Shown here in pieces: positions 13,837-61,457 of a DNA stretch of 64,000 nucleotides (its first letter is position 1; each line of letters starts with the position of its first letter). The position numbers and the translations under genes were made by a program. Location of the stretch: contig LR590468.1 in assembly GCA_901472505.1 (NCBI GenBank), forward strand, positions 2,641,501 to 2,705,500, read 5' to 3'. The notes beneath the pieces were generated by a model. It was not told the DNA's origin, made no database searches, and saw only the letters and a list, made by a program, of their open reading frames with translations. This DNA comes from Proteus vulgaris. Lineage in GTDB: Bacteria > Pseudomonadota > Gammaproteobacteria > Enterobacterales > Enterobacteriaceae.

Positions 13837-14754
13837 CTACAACCTAAAAATGGCAAAATCAGACGCAATTTCCGTATGGCTAAAAACGTGTTGGCTTTCT
13901 TTGAGTAACTCAACATAATCTTCTGGTAAATAACGGCTACTAATATGCGTAAGAATCAACTTTTTGACATTCGCGTTTTTTGCTAACGTTGCTGCTTGTA
14001 CTGTTGTTGAATGCCCACGGCTATTTGCTTGCTCTGCCATTTCATGCTTGAACGTTGCTTCATGCACAATGACATCTGCATTATTGGCAAGATTTAATGC
14101 ATTTGGTGTGGGTTGCGTATCACCAAAAATAGCAATACATCGTCCTTTTATTTCGGGGCCAATATACGCTTTGCCATCAATGGCTCTTCCATCTGGCAAT
14201 GTAATGGTTTTACCTTGTTTTAAATCTTGTAACCAAGGGCCAGTCGGAATATTTTCAGCTTTTAGCTTCTGGGCATCGAGTTTACCCGGACTATTTTTTT
14301 CTTCTAAGCGATAACCAAAACAAGGAACGGGATGAGAAAGCGCTTCACAACTGACTTTTATGCCTTCTTCATCAAAAAGAAAACCAGCATCTTCTATTTC
14401 CATAATATCAAGAGGATAAGTCAGATAAGATTGGCTTAATGTCAGGGCTGTTTCTATAAAGGCTTTTATACCTTTAGGGCCATATACCGTTAAGCGAGTC
14501 TCAGTTCCTCCCATTGAACGACTACACAGTAATCCTGGCAAACCAAAAATATGATCACCATGTAAGTGGGTAATAAAAATTTTATTTAAACGCGGTAATT
14601 TCACGCGGGTATGCAATATCTGATGCTGTGTGGCCTCACCACAATCAAACATCCACATACTTTTTTGTTTATTTTGTAAATCAAGTACCATACTGGTGAC
14701 GTTACGATCTTTAGAAGGTACACCTGCATTAGTGCCTAAGAAGATAAGCTCCAT
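13837..14754 (-). CDS. rbn: Ribonuclease BN/Z
   Basis: Metallo-beta-lactamase-fold zinc phosphodiesterase that trims tRNA 3' ends. 305 residues with the metal-binding motif THLHGDHIFGLPGL (about 62-75), the FDCGEATQHQ segment, an FGDTQPT second metal site near residue 210 and the THISSRY motif near the C-terminus; this is the ElaC/RNase BN pattern. It starts 9 bases after the rtcR stop on the same strand and is therefore probably cotranscribed with rtcR. This places a tRNA-maturation nuclease in the same transcription unit as the regulator of an RNA-repair operon. Confidence 0.93.
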   Translation of the reverse strand: MELIFLGTNAGVPSKDRNVTSMVLDLQNKQKSMWMFDCGEATQHQILHTRVKLPRLNKIFITHLHGDHIFGLPGLLCSRSMGGTETRLTVYGPKGIKAFIETALTLSQSYLTYPLDIMEIEDAGFLFDEEGIKVSCEALSHPVPCFGYRLEEKNSPGKLDAQKLKAENIPTGPWLQDLKQGKTITLPDGRAIDGKAYIGPEIKGRCIAIFGDTQPTPNALNLANNADVIVHEATFKHEMAEQANSRGHSTTVQAATLAKNANVKKLILTHISSRYLPEDYVELLKESQHVFSHTEIASDFAIFRL

Positions 14755-14763
14755 AATGATATA

Positions 14764-16352
14764 TTATTCTCCATGTTGAATTTGTTCCCAGCTTAAGCCA
14801 AATTTTGCAAGGTATTTGCGTAAGCGATCGGCATCGTTGGGTTGTTTTTTGTTTTGCCTTGATACAGCGAAAAGTTTTCTACCAGCCTCTGAGAGCGTTG
14901 ATGATTGCTGGCAAGTTTGGATAACCGTATTCAGTTGACTGAGATCGAAAAGATCGATATCCGAGTCCTTTAATAAAGAAGAGCTTATTCCCCAATTATG
15001 TTTTAAACGGCCAATTTCTTCCTCAACAAGTGTTAGAGTAATACGACCATTTTCGGCAAGTGTTGCCATTCGCGTTATGCTCGCACTTAGTTCACGAAAA
15101 TTACCACGCCATAATGCCTGCTCAGATGTAGCAAACCGAATATAGTGAGATTTTGCATCTGAATTAAAGCGGATCGCTTTTTGATAGTGTGTTGCAAAAT
15201 GATGTAGTTCATAGTCAATATTGGGTTCAATATCCTCTTTGCGATCGACTAATCCTGGTAGTGAAAAAGACCACATATTAATCCTTGCATAGAGATCTTC
15301 GCGAAAAAGCCCTTCCTTAATGTGCTTATCCATATTTCGATGTGTACCTGCTATCAACTGGAAATCGCTTTGTACTTCAGTATCTGAGCCATACGGATAA
15401 AACGATTTTTCTTCTATTGCTTTCAGTAACATCGCTTGCTCATCAAGCCCTAATTCTGCAATTTCATCCAGAAATAAAATCCCTTTATCGGCTTCTCTTA
15501 ATAATCCTTGTCTTGCTTGTAATGCGCCTGTAAATGCGCCTTTGACATGGCCAAATAAGGTAGACATGGCATTATCACCACGCAATGTTGCACAGTTAAC
15601 AGCAATAAAACGCCCTTTTACAAAATGGCGAGATTGCCGTAATTCATAAATACGTTGAGCAAGAAATGATTTTCCTGCACCGGTTGGGCCTGTTAATAAA
15701 ATGGGGGCAAAAGAGCGCAATGCGACTCGTTCAATTTGAGCAATTAAGGTATTGAATCGTTCATTACGTGTGGCAATCCCCGATTTTAAGAAAGAGAGTG
15801 ACTCTTTATGGTAGTGTTCAAATCGGCTCGTTAATTTTGTATAACGACTTAAATCGAGATCAATAACAGCATAACTGCCTGTGGCTGACGGTATGGTTTT
15901 GACACCGTCTTTATTGTCTACTTTAGAGGAGGGAGAGGTTTGTAATAGTTTTGCTGGTAAGTAATGTGCTTCTGTCAGTAAAAACCAACAAATTTGAGCA
16001 ATATGTGTTCCCGTTGTGATATGCACATAATATTCTTCATTTTCAGTATCAAATGGATAATTTACTGCAAAATCAAGAAAATGGCTGTAAACCTCTTCAA
16101 GATCCCACGGATCACAAATAGCAATTTCATAAGGACACACCTCAGTATTAGGCGAGATAGTATGGATATCTTGTGTAATTTTAGATGCTAGCATTGTGTC
16201 ATTAGGCTGGTGGATCATCACTAATCGGCTAACAGGGAAATCCTTTTGATGACAAATGGAAATTGTTGGCGCCATGAGTTCCACCTTTTATGGCTTTTGC
16301 CTCTTTTATCTAATGTTGTGCCTAAAACACCAATCACGACTTTACGTTTCAT
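14764..16352 (-). pseudogene. rtcR: RtcR, sigma-54-dependent activator of the RNA-repair operon (one frameshift)
   Basis: Bacterial enhancer-binding protein that senses RNA damage through an N-terminal CARF domain and activates a sigma-54 promoter. Reading starts MKRKVVIGVLGTTLDKRG at 16352. One base is missing at 16268-16269 (CC where CCC is expected on the coding strand, within W-R-P-T); downstream the frame continues as ISICHQKDFPVSRL to the end. Domains of the corrected 529-residue protein: CARF about 1-180; AAA+ core with Walker A GPTGAGKS, the sigma-54 contact GAFTGA and Walker B GILFLDEIAELG; and a C-terminal DNA-binding region. It is divergent from the sigma-54 promoter at 16517 and followed by rbn at 9 bases. 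The length matches E. coli RtcR (532), so the lesion is probably a read error. Confidence 0.92.
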
Positions 16353-16516
16353 TAAGTTATCCCTACTTATCTTTTTATCTATTTTTATAAATATATAGAT
16401 AAAAAGATAGTGATCTGTTGTTTTTAATTTAATGGGTAAATATCTAAAAATAGGCATTCAAATATTTTTGTCAATAAAAACAATAAATTAAAAATATTTT
16501 TTGTGTGTTTTAAAAA

Positions 16517-16533
16517 TTGGCACGATATTGGCA
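16517..16533 (+). promoter_or_regulatory. Sigma-54 promoter of the rtc operon
   Basis: TTGGCACG-ATAT-TGGCA: the invariant GG (16519-16520) and GC (16531-16532) doublets are exactly 12 bases apart, as required for -24/-12 recognition. It faces the slipin-rtcB operon and lies about 165 bases from the divergent rtcR start. The predicted transcript start is near 16544. The -15/-14 bases deviate slightly from consensus (TG for TT). Confidence 0.85.
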
Positions 16534-16543
16534 ATGTTATGAC

Positions 16544-16676
16544 TGTCTTGAGCAGATTTTAAATCTGGTAGGCACATAAAGAACACGCTGTGGTGTTATC
16601 CAAATGTGTTCCTCCACATCGAGACTCTGTAGGTGAAGAGGGTTATTTTCAGGTTCGATTCCTGACACCAAAACCA
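16544..16676 (+). ncRNA. Candidate tRNA-mimic (YrlA-like Y RNA) at the head of the rtc operon
   Basis: A T-arm identical in form to tRNA, TCAGG-TTCGATT-CCTGA at 16649-16665, is followed by CACCAAA, A, CCA at 16666-16676. A D-arm-like hairpin (CTCT 16625-16628, loop GTAGGTGA with GG, AGAG 16637-16640) precedes it. A 5' acceptor candidate TGTGGTG (16589-16595) pairs with CACCAAA at 6 of 7 positions. Other hairpins are CAGATT/AATCTG near 16554, AACAC/GTGTT near 16582 and ATGTG/CACAT at 16604-16619. No anticodon arm lies between the D- and T-like arms. Such D/T/acceptor mimicry lacking an anticodon is known for YrlA RNAs of the rsr-yrlBA-rtcBA operons. The 5' boundary is inferred from the sigma-54 site. 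No Ro/Rsr gene is in the window, so the Y RNA assignment is provisional. Confidence 0.55.
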
Positions 16677-16897
16677 TTACAAATCCAAATGTAAAATTAA
16701 CGATAAAAAACCGTTGTGACAGCAGTACCGTCACCTTACTTATCCACCAGTAACTGAGCCGGGTTGAAAGCAGAAGAAGAGACAAACAAAGTATCGTTCC
16801 TCTCTTGTTTACCTTTCAGTTTCGCAAAGCTTGCCCGTGGAAAAGTAAGTTACGATAAATTGCACGATATAAAGAAGAAAAGAAGAAGGAACGAAAA
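16677..16897 (+). other. Leader between the tRNA-like RNA and the slipin gene
   Basis: 221 bases without an ORF I trust. It contains a short hairpin GTGAC (16715-16719) with GTCAC (16729-16733), and ends in the purine-rich AGAAGAAGGAACG that serves as ribosome binding site for the ATG at 16898. Confidence 0.4.
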
Positions 16898-18040
16898 ATG
16901 ATAAAAACAACAATAGTAGTAAAACAGGGGCAATTAGCACTTCTAAAGAAAAGAGATGAGTATATTGATGTGCTAATGGCAGGTGAACATAAATTTTTTG
17001 ATTTAGGGCGTCAGCTCAGTGCGGATATTTTCCCTTTAAATGGTGGGGCATTAGAAAGTGAGAAAGCAGAATTTTTGCGTCAATATTATCCTCAATGGGT
17101 GACTGAGTATGGTTTTGATATCGTGTTATCGGATGAAGAAATTGGTCTTTTATATGAAAACGGCTCTTTAAAAGAGATCTTAGCGCCGGGAACGCGACGT
17201 TTATATTGGCGTTATGCTGACCGTTATTTGGAAATTGTATCTATCGATGAACTTGAAGTATCTGCAACATTGATGAAAAAACTTCAGCATCCCAAATTAC
17301 GAAATCAAGTCATAAAGGGAAGCGAAGGGGTACTCAATGTGGATATACCTGCTTGGCACGCAGGTATTATTCGAATCGACGGTGAAACGCAAGCTTTATT
17401 GCCACCAGGATCAAAAGGCTATTGGCGTTATCAGCATAAAGTGGATGTTGAAGTAGTCGATATGCGTTTACAAACACTGGATGTTAGTGGGCAGGAGATC
17501 CTAACGAAAGACAAAGTGACACTGCGTATTAATTTATCAGCTAACTGGCGTTATAGCGAGGTGCTTTTAGCATATCAACAACTAACTTCACCGTTGGAGT
17601 TCTTATATAAAGAGTTGCAATTTGCTTTACGTGAAGCAGTAGGAACAAGGACGCTTGATGAATTATTAGAAAATAAAAGCCTGATAGATAGTTTAGTCAG
17701 TGAAAAAATCAGTGAAGTCACTCAAGGATATGGTATTGAAGTGGCTTCATTAGGGGTAAAAGATATCGTTTTACCCGGTGAAATGAAAACGATTTTAGCG
17801 CAAGTCGTTGAAGCGGAAAAATCAGCACAAGCTAATGTTATTCGTCGAAGAGAAGAGACATCGGCAACACGTTCTTTATTAAATACCGCGAAAGTGATGG
17901 AAAATAACCCGGTCGCTTTACGACTAAAAGAGCTAGAAACGGTGGAACGTATTGCAGAACGTATTGATAAGATCTCCGTTTATGGCGGTTTAGATCAAGT
18001 ATTAAACGGATTAGTCCAAATTAAAGGAGCACAAGCATGA
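16898..18040 (+). CDS. Slipin/SPFH (band 7) family protein of the rtc operon
   Basis: 380 residues, uninterrupted. The central part (about 150-320) carries an SPFH/band-7 domain: GVLNVDIPAWHAGIIRIDG, QEILTKDKVTLRINLSANWR, an ALREAVGTRTLDELL segment and IEVASLGVKDIVLPGEMK, followed by a helical tail with an EAEKSAQANVIRRREE segment typical of slipins. Unlike membrane stomatins there is no obvious N-terminal membrane helix, so it is probably soluble or peripherally bound. Its stop overlaps the rtcB start (ATGA at 18037-18040), so the two are translationally coupled. Association with RtcB suggests a role in RNA-damage response, perhaps as a scaffold; that is inference. It is the first protein gene after the sigma-54 promoter. 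Confidence 0.82.
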   Translation: MIKTTIVVKQGQLALLKKRDEYIDVLMAGEHKFFDLGRQLSADIFPLNGGALESEKAEFLRQYYPQWVTEYGFDIVLSDEEIGLLYENGSLKEILAPGTRRLYWRYADRYLEIVSIDELEVSATLMKKLQHPKLRNQVIKGSEGVLNVDIPAWHAGIIRIDGETQALLPPGSKGYWRYQHKVDVEVVDMRLQTLDVSGQEILTKDKVTLRINLSANWRYSEVLLAYQQLTSPLEFLYKELQFALREAVGTRTLDELLENKSLIDSLVSEKISEVTQGYGIEVASLGVKDIVLPGEMKTILAQVVEAEKSAQANVIRRREETSATRSLLNTAKVMENNPVALRLKELETVERIAERIDKISVYGGLDQVLNGLVQIKGAQA

Positions 18041-19265
18041 TATTGGATCACCAAATAGTAAAAGAAGCAGGGACTGCTGAAATAAAAATGTGGACGAATG
18101 GTGTGCCTGTTGAAGTAGATGCTCTAAAGCAGCTTATTAATACCGCCAAGATGCCATTTATCTTTAAACATATGGCAGTCATGCCTGATGTTCATTTAGG
18201 TAAAGGTTCAACAATAGGGAGTGTTATTCCAACCAAAGGGGCGATTATTCCTGCCGCTGTTGGTGTGGATATCGGTTGTGGAATGATTGCCGTAAAAACA
18301 TCATTACACGCAAATGATCTACCTGATAATTTATTTGCCATAAGAACGGCAATAGAGCAAGCCGTTCCTCATGGAAGAACAAGTTATCATTCAGGGAATG
18401 ATCGTGGTTCATGGAAGGAGCCACCTAATATTGTCGATCAACATTGGCAACAGCTTGAAGGGCGTTTTAACGCTTTAACCGATAAGTATCCATGTTTACG
18501 TAATACCAATAACTATCGTCATCTCGGTACGTTAGGAACAGGAAACCATTTTATTGAATTGTGTCTTGATGAATCGGATAACGTTTGGGTAATGCTACAT
18601 AGTGGGTCTCGTGGTGGTTGGTAATGCGATTGGTACGTTATTTATACAAATGGCGCAAGACGATATGAGAGAACATATCGCTAATTTGCCAGATAAAAAC
18701 TTAGCGTACTTAAAAGAAGGAACACTTTTCTATGATGACTATATAGAAGCGGTCGAAATGGGCACAGGATTTTGCGCGACATAATCGAGAAATCATGATG
18801 GAACGCGTGTTAGTTGCATTATCAACACAAATTGCTAAACCTTTCACGACACAGCAACAAGCTGTCAATTGTCACCATAACTATGTGCAAAAGGAAATGC
18901 ATTTTGGTGAGGAAGTACTGGTAACACGAAAAGGGGCTGTTTCAGCGCAGCGTGGTGAAATGGGGATCATTCCAGGTTCAATGGGGCTAAGAGCTTTATT
19001 GTAAGAGGAAAAGGAAATGCCGAAAGCTTCTGTTCATGTAGTCATGGTGCCGGACGCGTAATGAGGTCGAACGGCTGCGAAAAAAGCTTTTAGTGTTGAA
19101 GACCAAATTCGAGCTACAGCGCATGTGGAATGTCCGAAAAGATAAAGATGTCATTGACGAAATTCCAATGGCTTATAAGGACATTGACGCTGTTATGAAG
19201 GCACAATCAATCATTAGTTGAAATTGTTCATACTCTAAGACAGGTAGTTTTGTGTGAAAGGATAA
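18037..19265 (+). pseudogene. rtcB: RtcB RNA 3'-phosphate ligase, seven frameshifts as given
   Basis: RtcB joins RNA 3'-phosphate or 2',3'-cyclic phosphate ends to 5'-OH ends, using GTP and Mn2+. The first 190 residues read cleanly and include PDVHLGKGSTIGSV and the metal-binding DIGCGM motif. Downstream the family sequence continues through seven indels: extra G near 18612, extra A 18756-18758, missing G 18983-18986, extra G 19065-19066, extra C 19135-19136, extra A 19209-19210 and extra T 19248-19251. In the right frames one reads SHGAGR with the guanylated His, DQIRATAHVECRKD, EIPMAYKDIDAVM and the terminal VCVKG. Corrected length is about 408 residues, equal to E. coli RtcB. Conservation between indels, with no extra substitutions, suggests poor sequence quality rather than decay. 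No rtcA follows. Confidence 0.9.
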
Positions 19266-19692
19266 CAAGGCGTTACACGAAATAATTACATAACTATCCC
19301 CAAACAATTATGTAGGGGATAGTGAGATATGATAGCGTGTGCATGAAATGCAAATGAATAAAAATTTTAAGAATGGAATTTTTCTTTAAATAAGATCCTT
19401 ATTTTTTTGATTAAAAATCAAACAAAGAATGTTTAGTATTATTAATAAATAAAGATTGATATTAAATTTATTTCTCTCAAATAAAGATAATCAAAAATAG
19501 AATACTAATATTGAATTACTCTTTAATTAGAGAAAGATTATTAATAACAATAATCGTGATTATTTATTTAGTATAAAACAATTCTAATTTTCTTAATTAT
19601 ATTAAAATTAACTTTATTCTTATTGAAAAAGTATAGCCTACTCTATTTAGTGTATTAATTTTTCAGCGAGTATATTAATTAAACACTACTTG
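19266..19692. other. AT-rich region between rtcB and mrpI
   Basis: Apart from the dyads at 19287-19323 just after rtcB, this stretch is strongly AT-rich and has no supportable gene. mrpI ends at 19693 on the opposite strand, so the two units converge here. Confidence 0.5.
19287..19323 (+). terminator. Hairpin region after rtcB with two alternative stems
   Basis: ACTATCCCC (19293-19301) pairs perfectly with GGGGATAGT (19315-19323). TACATAA (19287-19293) also pairs perfectly with TTATGTA (19308-19314). The two helices cannot form together because no linker bases remain. No T-run follows, so termination would not be classical. Confidence 0.45.
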
Positions 19693-61344: not shown

Positions 61345-61351
61345 CTAAAGA

Positions 61352-61398
61352 TGGTGCCCGAACTCGGAATCGAACCAAGGACACGGGGATTTTCAATC
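61352..61398 (-). other. 3' end of tRNA-Phe, likely element attachment site
   Basis: Read on the minus strand, these 47 bases match the 3' half of enterobacterial tRNA-Phe: anticodon-loop region GATTGAAAATC, then CCCCGTGTCCTTGG, T-arm GGTTCGATTCC, acceptor end and CCA. The match starts inside the anticodon stem and diverges at 61399. One acceptor base differs from the E. coli form (TTCGGGC for TCCGGGC, a G-U pair). The 5' half is absent, so this is a fragment left by integration. The proper tRNA terminator is retained next to it, so this is the chromosomal side of the attachment site. Confidence 0.85.
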
Positions 61399-61457
61399 AG
61401 TTATTAGAAAAATATATTTGGCATCTGTCACTGATAATACTTTATCAGGTGACTTAT

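What the first reader, a model, noticed from the sequence alone, without database searches (positions are those of the whole stretch)
16517..16897. Sigma-54-driven tRNA mimic heading a slipin-rtcB RNA-repair operon
Seen: a perfectly spaced -24/-12 promoter, then a T-arm of exact tRNA form (TCAGG-TTCGATT-CCTGA) followed by CACCAAA-A-CCA, and a D-arm-like hairpin with GG in its loop and no anticodon arm between. Known: YrlA Y RNAs in rsr-yrlBA-rtcBA operons mimic tRNA in this way, and RtcR senses RNA fragments. Here no Rsr/Ro gene is present, a slipin gene takes that position, and a CCA end is encoded in the DNA. This suggests a Ro-less version in Proteus. The RNA could act as a repair substrate, decoy or carrier for slipin/RtcB.
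Basis: partly seen in the sequence, partly recalled or inferred. Interest (0 to 1): 0.75.

Follow-up and report, generated by a model that had tools for sequence, protein, structure and literature searches.

The report
tRNA-mimicking leader of slipin RNA-repair operon
Upstream of a bacterial RNA-repair operon lies a conserved, folded RNA of about 300 bases that contains a piece imitating part of a tRNA; the kind was probably proposed in 2016, but here its full shape and spread can be seen and tested.

Summary
Between a sigma-54 site (16517-16534) and the slipin gene lies a conserved structured leader: a three-helix domain I (16545-16625), a tRNA-like part (16632-16676) and a long irregular hairpin, domain III (16738-16845). 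Covariance models built without Proteus find both halves in the window: 52.2 bits and 52.7 bits. In 198 family genomes all 17 strong hits lie just upstream of this slipin gene. It is not YrlA, not a recognised tRNA gene, and reaches no Rfam cut-off. The RNA is not Proteus-specific: it spans enterics, with weaker forms beyond, some with a second tRNA-shaped element. Prior art lowers novelty: a 2026 preprint credits Burroughs and Aravind 2016 with bacterial MVP homologues and operon-sharing ncRNAs in RNA repair (passages); I recall that paper naming a 'tRNA-like molecule' cognate to SPFH/Band-7 proteins. Most likely role: RNA partner of slipin in tRNA repair. Function is inferred; no transcript was seen.

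The parts
14764..16275 (-). rtcR: CARF plus sigma-54 activator, divergent from the leader; the start of the family profile is not covered in this frame (match begins at profile position 28) and words like its usual N-terminus lie in another frame (ORF 16221-16457)
   Evidence: NF038308 749 bits, PF06956; ORF list; other RtcR starts
16517..16534 (+). sigma-54 promoter, -24 GG at 16519-16520 and -12 GC at 16531-16532
   Evidence: a site of this kind before the RNA in 46 of 46 named enteric loci
16545..16625 (+). domain I: P1 GUCUUGA/UCGAGAC, P2 CAGAU/AUCUG, P3 AGG-CACAU/AUGUG-UU-CCU with inner helix (Proteus pairs drawn by eye on the family structure)
   Evidence: blind covariance hit 16524-16683; pair counts
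16632..16676 (+). tRNA-like part: acceptor GGUG 16632-16635 / CACC 16666-16669, linker with GG 16636-16648, T-arm 16649-16665, encoded CCA 16674-16676
16738..16845 (+). domain III: long irregular hairpin with conserved internal loops
   Evidence: blind covariance hit, 52.7 bits, E 7.3e-13, only match up to E 10; pair counts
16898..18040 (+). slipin: SPFH/Band-7 protein with N-terminal beta modules and a long C-terminal helix
   Evidence: PF01145; model and fold comparison
18037..19258 (+). rtcB, RNA ligase, broken over at least three frames in this assembly
   Evidence: PF01139 on the first piece; tblastn pieces; one unbroken match in 8 of 8 other named Proteus loci

Best explanation
The leader is a structured noncoding RNA that belongs to the slipin (SPFH/Band-7) type of RNA-repair operon. 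Damaged tRNA activates RtcR (known for the Salmonella operon), RtcR with sigma-54 fires this promoter, and the first ~300 nt of the transcript fold into domain I, a tRNA-like acceptor/T-arm part and domain III. I think the RNA works as the RNA partner of slipin, as Y RNA does for Rsr: domains I and III bind or organise slipin, and the tRNA-like part lets the particle dock tRNA-handling enzymes or stand in for a broken tRNA while RtcB and RlaP repair it. Shown here: promoter site, conservation, covariation, linkage to slipin. Inferred: transcription as one RNA, release from the mRNA, slipin binding, recruitment.
For: Blind covariance hits on both halves (E-values are rough, by the tool's own note). 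Pairing 85.8% against 33-50% for slid partners, 31 of 35 pairs with double changes (on an alignment fitted to the structure); 81.0% against 33-50% on an alignment made without structure, though the structure was drawn from one of its sequences; domain III 84.2% against 39-47%, the structure being derived from folds of those sequences. All 17 strong hits among 198 family genomes lie just upstream of slipin, 17 of 18 genomes with a slipin match below E 1e-45 have one, and the next best hit has 36 bits. The RNA is kept in 13 of 46 enteric loci without RtcB in the locus, 12 of which have RlaP, which points to slipin as the partner. A sigma-54 site precedes it in 46 of 46, at near-fixed distance in all but L058. 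A 2026 preprint (passages) credits Burroughs and Aravind 2016 with MVP homologues and operon-sharing ncRNAs in bacterial RNA repair.
Against: No transcript or binding data. The T-loop is lost in 3 of 46 enteric loci (L080, L090, L107) and a GG in the 14 bases before the T-stem is found in only 26 of 43, so tRNA mimicry is not indispensable. The RNA sits in the 5' UTR of slipin, so a cis role would give the same linkage. The named loci were found through slipin, and R2 was trained on such loci; one search looked at whole genomes regardless of slipin, but for one family only, with stricter filters that lose weak matches.
Confidence: 0.58

Rival explanations
1. Cis-regulatory leader: the RNA senses tRNA repair state or slipin/RtcB level and controls expression of its own mRNA, with no separate life.
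For: It lies in the 5' UTR on the same strand, with no terminator-like site on that strand in 16300-19400. All 17 strong hits are directly upstream of slipin.
Against: Domain III ends about 50 nt before the Proteus start codon, so it does not obviously cover the ribosome-binding region. Non-enteric loci add a second tRNA-shaped element, more than a switch would seem to need.
Confidence: 0.22
2. Sacrificial decoy or sentinel: the tRNA-like part draws anticodon nucleases or other tRNA-binding toxins, or is itself cut to feed RtcR.
For: In beta and Gilliamella loci the second element has a whole cloverleaf with varied anticodon loops: where ARAGORN calls it, the anticodon differs from lineage to lineage, is undetermined in L108 and L125 and a stop in L097. 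The RtcR signal is an oligoribonucleotide with a 2',3'-cyclic phosphate end, predicted to be a cleaved tRNA (PMC9879122, passages). The authors of PMC7790460 suggest that the YrlA tRNA-like domain could be a competitive inhibitor of the nuclease (passages).
Against: The Proteus and other enteric forms lack an anticodon arm. YrlA fragments were not detected after damage in Salmonella (passage).
Confidence: 0.12
3. Relic of an ordinary tRNA gene or of a tRNA array that once belonged to the operon.
For: Ten of 34 non-enteric loci have five or more ARAGORN tRNA calls on the same strand upstream of slipin.
Against: Compensatory changes in the acceptor and T stems, and conservation across genera, show selection. 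ARAGORN calls no tRNA at the leader in any of the 46 enteric loci, and Rfam none in the window or the 8 enteric loci scanned.
Confidence: 0.06
4. A divergent YrlA/Y RNA that has kept the module but lost Rsr.
For: Same regulator, same kind of operon, tRNA-like part.
Against: No YrlA match at the leader up to E 10; the reverse test on six YrlA loci gives at most 16 bits; the 6 genomes with YrlA over the cut-off and the 18 with slipin do not overlap among the same 198. Weaker YrlA matches, E up to 0.001, occur in 155 of those 198, own genome included (E 1.1e-4), and look like tRNA background.
Confidence: 0.02

Closest known systems
SPFH/Band-7 module with a cognate tRNA-like ncRNA in RtcB operons (Burroughs and Aravind, NAR 2016)
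   Same: SPFH protein, RtcB, RlaP-type nucleotidyltransferase, tRNA-like RNA in one operon. Abstract recalled; paper not held. Indirect confirmation: PMC13404743 passages.
   Different: I cannot tell whether domains I and III, the second cloverleaf or the sigma-54 spacing were described there. Proteus lacks RlaP in the locus (8 of 8 named).
YrlA / bacterial Y RNA (RF02553) of rsr-yrlBA-rtcBA operons
   Same: RtcR/sigma-54 control, operon with RtcB, tRNA-like part (PMC7790460 and PMC9879122, passages).
   Different: No covariance match to speak of either way; no Rsr; slipin instead; different genomes.
tmRNA tRNA-like domain (recalled)
   Same: Acceptor and T-arm without an anticodon arm; GG in an open linker.
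   Different: ARAGORN finds no tmRNA in the window; placed in a leader.
Vault particle (major vault protein, vault RNA)
Anabaena TrcR regulon
   Same: A tRNA array, rtcB, a slipin gene (alr0740) and an HNH endonuclease (all8564) respond to TrcR loss (PMC10272220 passages); L098 and L103 here put the same four kinds side by side.
   Different: RHH repressor instead of RtcR; genes scattered; no tRNA-like leader in the passages that I read.

Membership tests
SPFH-linked tRNA-like RNA of RNA-repair operons | SPFH/Band-7 gene directly downstream | tested here: met
   PF01145; 17 of 17 strong hits in 198 genomes
SPFH-linked tRNA-like RNA of RNA-repair operons | RNA ligase (RtcB) in the operon | tested here: met
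   PF01139 on the first rtcB piece; broken in this assembly, unbroken in 8 of 8 other named Proteus loci
SPFH-linked tRNA-like RNA of RNA-repair operons | tRNA-like fold (acceptor plus T-arm) with covariation | tested here: met
   helices 7 and 8; Proteus acceptor change
SPFH-linked tRNA-like RNA of RNA-repair operons | identity with the molecule described in 2016 | not testable with these tools
   paper not held
YrlA / Y RNA (RF02553) | match to the family covariance model | tested here: not met
   no match at gathering nor at the leader up to E 10
YrlA / Y RNA (RF02553) | Rsr/Ro60 gene in the operon | tested here: not met
   the only gene-sized ORF on the + strand between promoter and rtcB is an SPFH protein
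tRNA gene | recognised cloverleaf with anticodon arm | tested here: not met
   ARAGORN and Rfam find none in the window
sigma-54/RtcR operon | -24/-12 site with divergent rtcR | tested here: met
   rtcR divergent in 45 of 46 named enteric loci
major vault protein | repeat domains plus shoulder plus cap helix | tested here: inconclusive
   whole-model alignment 4-336, but N-terminal part alone not matched

The most novel reading that the evidence does not exclude
Domains I and III, not the tRNA-like part, are the core of a three-domain RNA class that forms the RNA component of a vault-like bacterial slipin particle for tRNA repair. The tRNA mimic is an exchangeable tip: absent in some loci, one mini-helix in enterics, and doubled with a varied anticodon loop in beta-proteobacteria, where whole spare-tRNA arrays can join the operon.
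Probability: 0.2. Interest if true: 0.78.

Novelty: new member of a known kind. Interest (0 to 1): 0.5.

Why it matters
RNA-repair operons under RtcR can come with a Ro/Y RNA pair or with a slipin and its own RNA, and what these RNAs do is open. A covariance-supported three-domain model makes the slipin RNA findable, mappable and deletable. If slipin and this RNA form a particle, the link between bacterial RNA repair and eukaryotic vaults, already raised in print, becomes directly testable.

Tried and rejected
Single-sequence folding of 16544-16676 was uninformative. Rfam gave only a chance match to TUG1_2 at the leader (E 4.9). A class-level sample of 369 genomes gave no strong hit except the own genome; the rest, at most 35 bits, look like tRNA background. 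R1's second window hit (61345-61415, 16.4 bits) is a tRNA 3' part, not the family. L017 is a 37-base match taken as chance. Ten genomes with the tRNA-array or a similar layout were searched for RtcR: matches began at residue 138 or later, that is the ATPase part of other activators, and none covered the CARF part (some of these genomes are drafts). The idea that slipin is plainly an MVP was weakened by the N-terminal-only model. I thought that encoded CCA might go with absence of RlaP: Proteus has CCA and no RlaP, while several RlaP-bearing enterics read ACCU, but L070 has both CCA and RlaP and the lineages are few, so I do not claim it.

Searches of papers for slipin with RtcB, RtcR with Y RNA, Band-7, tRNA-like with RtcBA, RNA damage and conflicts, tRNA array with RtcB, RlaP, SPFH and vault (listings) showed no paper on this RNA beyond those cited; the key 2016 paper is not held.

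Full report
What is there. The window is from Proteus, judging by its relatives and the named records nearest its slipin. It holds rtcR on the minus strand, then a sigma-54 site, a 360-base leader, a slipin gene and rtcB. The leader, searched as DNA, matches in 16 of the 20 genomes of the genus examined, own genome included.

Chance. The strict sigma-54 site occurs once in the window against 0.03 expected, and the strict T-arm once against none in 100 random sequences; the loose patterns are not rarer than chance, 1 against 1.25 and 2 against 1.73. One fold alone is not unusually stable. The case therefore rests on comparison.

Related loci. A scan with slipin kept its best 80 named loci. Of the 46 enteric ones (L048-L092 and L107), 45 have rtcR divergent, 33 have RtcB and 36 have RlaP in the locus (PF10127). 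All 46 have a sigma-54 site before the RNA: 7 to 9 bases from its GC to the start of the model hit in 38, 0 to 1 in seven Proteus loci whose hit starts further upstream, and 27 in L058. The T-loop is present in 43 of 46.

Structure of the first half. From 22 non-Proteus enterics I drew a structure of eight helices. On that alignment, made without structure, 81.0% of cells pair, against 33-50% when partners are slid, and 21 of 35 pairs have double changes; but the structure came from one of these sequences, helix 5 pairs in only 45.5% of cells, and the count of further pair types does not exceed the shuffles. The model R1, with no Proteus in it, finds the Proteus leader at 52.2 bits, E 2.3e-12, in 64 kb. 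It also finds all 24 enteric loci that were not used to build it. In the 53-sequence alignment 31 of 35 pairs have double changes and 85.8% of cells pair, against 33-50% slid; that alignment is fitted to the structure.

The tRNA-like part. The acceptor helix is GGUG/CACC in Proteus and CAGUG/CACUG in P. hauseri, and by eye GCGAA/UUCGC, GUGAU/AUCAC or GGUGAU/AUCACC elsewhere. A GG, as in a tRNA D-loop, stands in the 14 bases before the T-stem in 26 of 43; loci of the Klebsiella/Citrobacter type and several Providencia lack it. CCA is encoded in Proteus at tRNA spacing, with one A too many in 2 of 9.

Domain III. A second structure, derived from folds of 24 non-Proteus enterics, has 84.2% of cells paired, against 39-47% slid, and 28 of 35 pairs with double changes. 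Its model R3 finds 16738-16845 in the window as the only match up to E 10 (52.7 bits, E 7.3e-13), and 21 of 21 other enteric loci given plus 7 of 32 non-enteric ones.

Linkage. R2, trained on slipin-linked loci, was run over 198 whole family genomes: 17 hits have 76 to 127 bits; the next has 36. Each of the 17 genomes has a slipin match below E 1e-45 just downstream on the same strand; the eighteenth slipin genome, G235, has a fragment of the gene only and no strong hit listed. YrlA over its cut-off is in 6 of the same 198 genomes, none of the 18; weaker YrlA matches in 155 of 198 look like tRNA background.

Beyond enterics. R1 matches domain I with the mimic at E below 1e-3 in 5 of 34 non-enteric loci (L093, L094, L118, L125, L126), in L106 only at the second element, and more weakly at the same place in others. 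Of 32 loci aligned, 22 show two T-arms 70-79 bases apart and 10 show one. By eye the first mimic has up to 6-7 acceptor pairs (L094, L099, L125) and the letters CCA follow in 18 of the 22; the second is a cloverleaf with a 4-5 bp acceptor and varied anticodon loops, and Rfam calls it tRNA in seven of the eight non-enteric loci scanned. Ten of 34 have five or more tRNA calls, the second mimic included in several, and no rtcR in the locus; in the two examined with Pfam an HNH endonuclease lies between array and leader.

Prior knowledge. The RtcR signal in Salmonella is an oligoribonucleotide with a 2',3'-cyclic phosphate end, predicted to be a cleaved tRNA (PMC9879122, passages); that 5' tRNA fragments are bound I recall from PMC7790460, of which I saw the start of the abstract and passages. 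TROVE proteins are described as an RNP platform for RNA repair with a tRNA-like partner, and RlaP as predicted to restore lost nucleotides (PMC7824862, passages). P. aeruginosa has an SPFH gene in its rtc locus (PMC13086221, one passage). A 2026 preprint states that bacterial MVP homologues and ncRNAs sharing their operon were implicated in RNA repair by Burroughs and Aravind 2016, and that RtcB shares operons with MVP homologues (PMC13404743, passages). I recall the 2016 abstract naming SPFH/Band-7 modules with 'a novel tRNA-like molecule'; the paper is not held. The finding is therefore filed as a new member of a known kind, with a fuller structure than I could find in print.

Mechanism. Shown: site, conservation, covariation, linkage. 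Inferred: that RtcR drives this promoter here, that the RNA is made and released, and that it serves slipin. Retention of the RNA in 13 enteric loci without RtcB favours slipin over RtcB as partner; loss of the T-loop in three loci says the tRNA-like part is not the core. A cis-regulatory role is the main rival.

Noticed in passing
window 61345-61415 (-): 3' part of a tRNA (T-arm, acceptor strand, CCA; tRNA-Phe-like from memory) without a complete tRNA gene: possible attachment site of an integrative element.
   Followed up: no
window 14764-16457 and 18037-19258: rtcR start and rtcB are spread over several frames in this assembly; rtcB is unbroken in 8 of 8 other named Proteus loci. Sequencing errors or recent decay.
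   Followed up: partly
window 13837-14754 (-): A metallo-beta-lactamase-fold gene resembling tRNase Z (PF12706; PF13691 just under its cut-off) lies next to rtcR.
   Followed up: no
L098, L099, L103, L111, L115, L126 and others: Five to 17 ARAGORN tRNA calls on the same strand upstream of slipin, without rtcR in the locus (ten of 34 non-enteric loci); an HNH_5 gene lies between array and leader in L098 and L103. The Anabaena TrcR regulon holds the same kinds of genes.
   Followed up: partly
L059, L061, L066, L068, L069, L071, L072, L074, L075, L078, L079, L085, L091: Slipin loci without RtcB that keep the leader RNA, 12 of 13 with RlaP directly after slipin.
   Followed up: partly
L080, L090, L107: Leader with domain I kept but no recognisable T-loop.
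   Followed up: no
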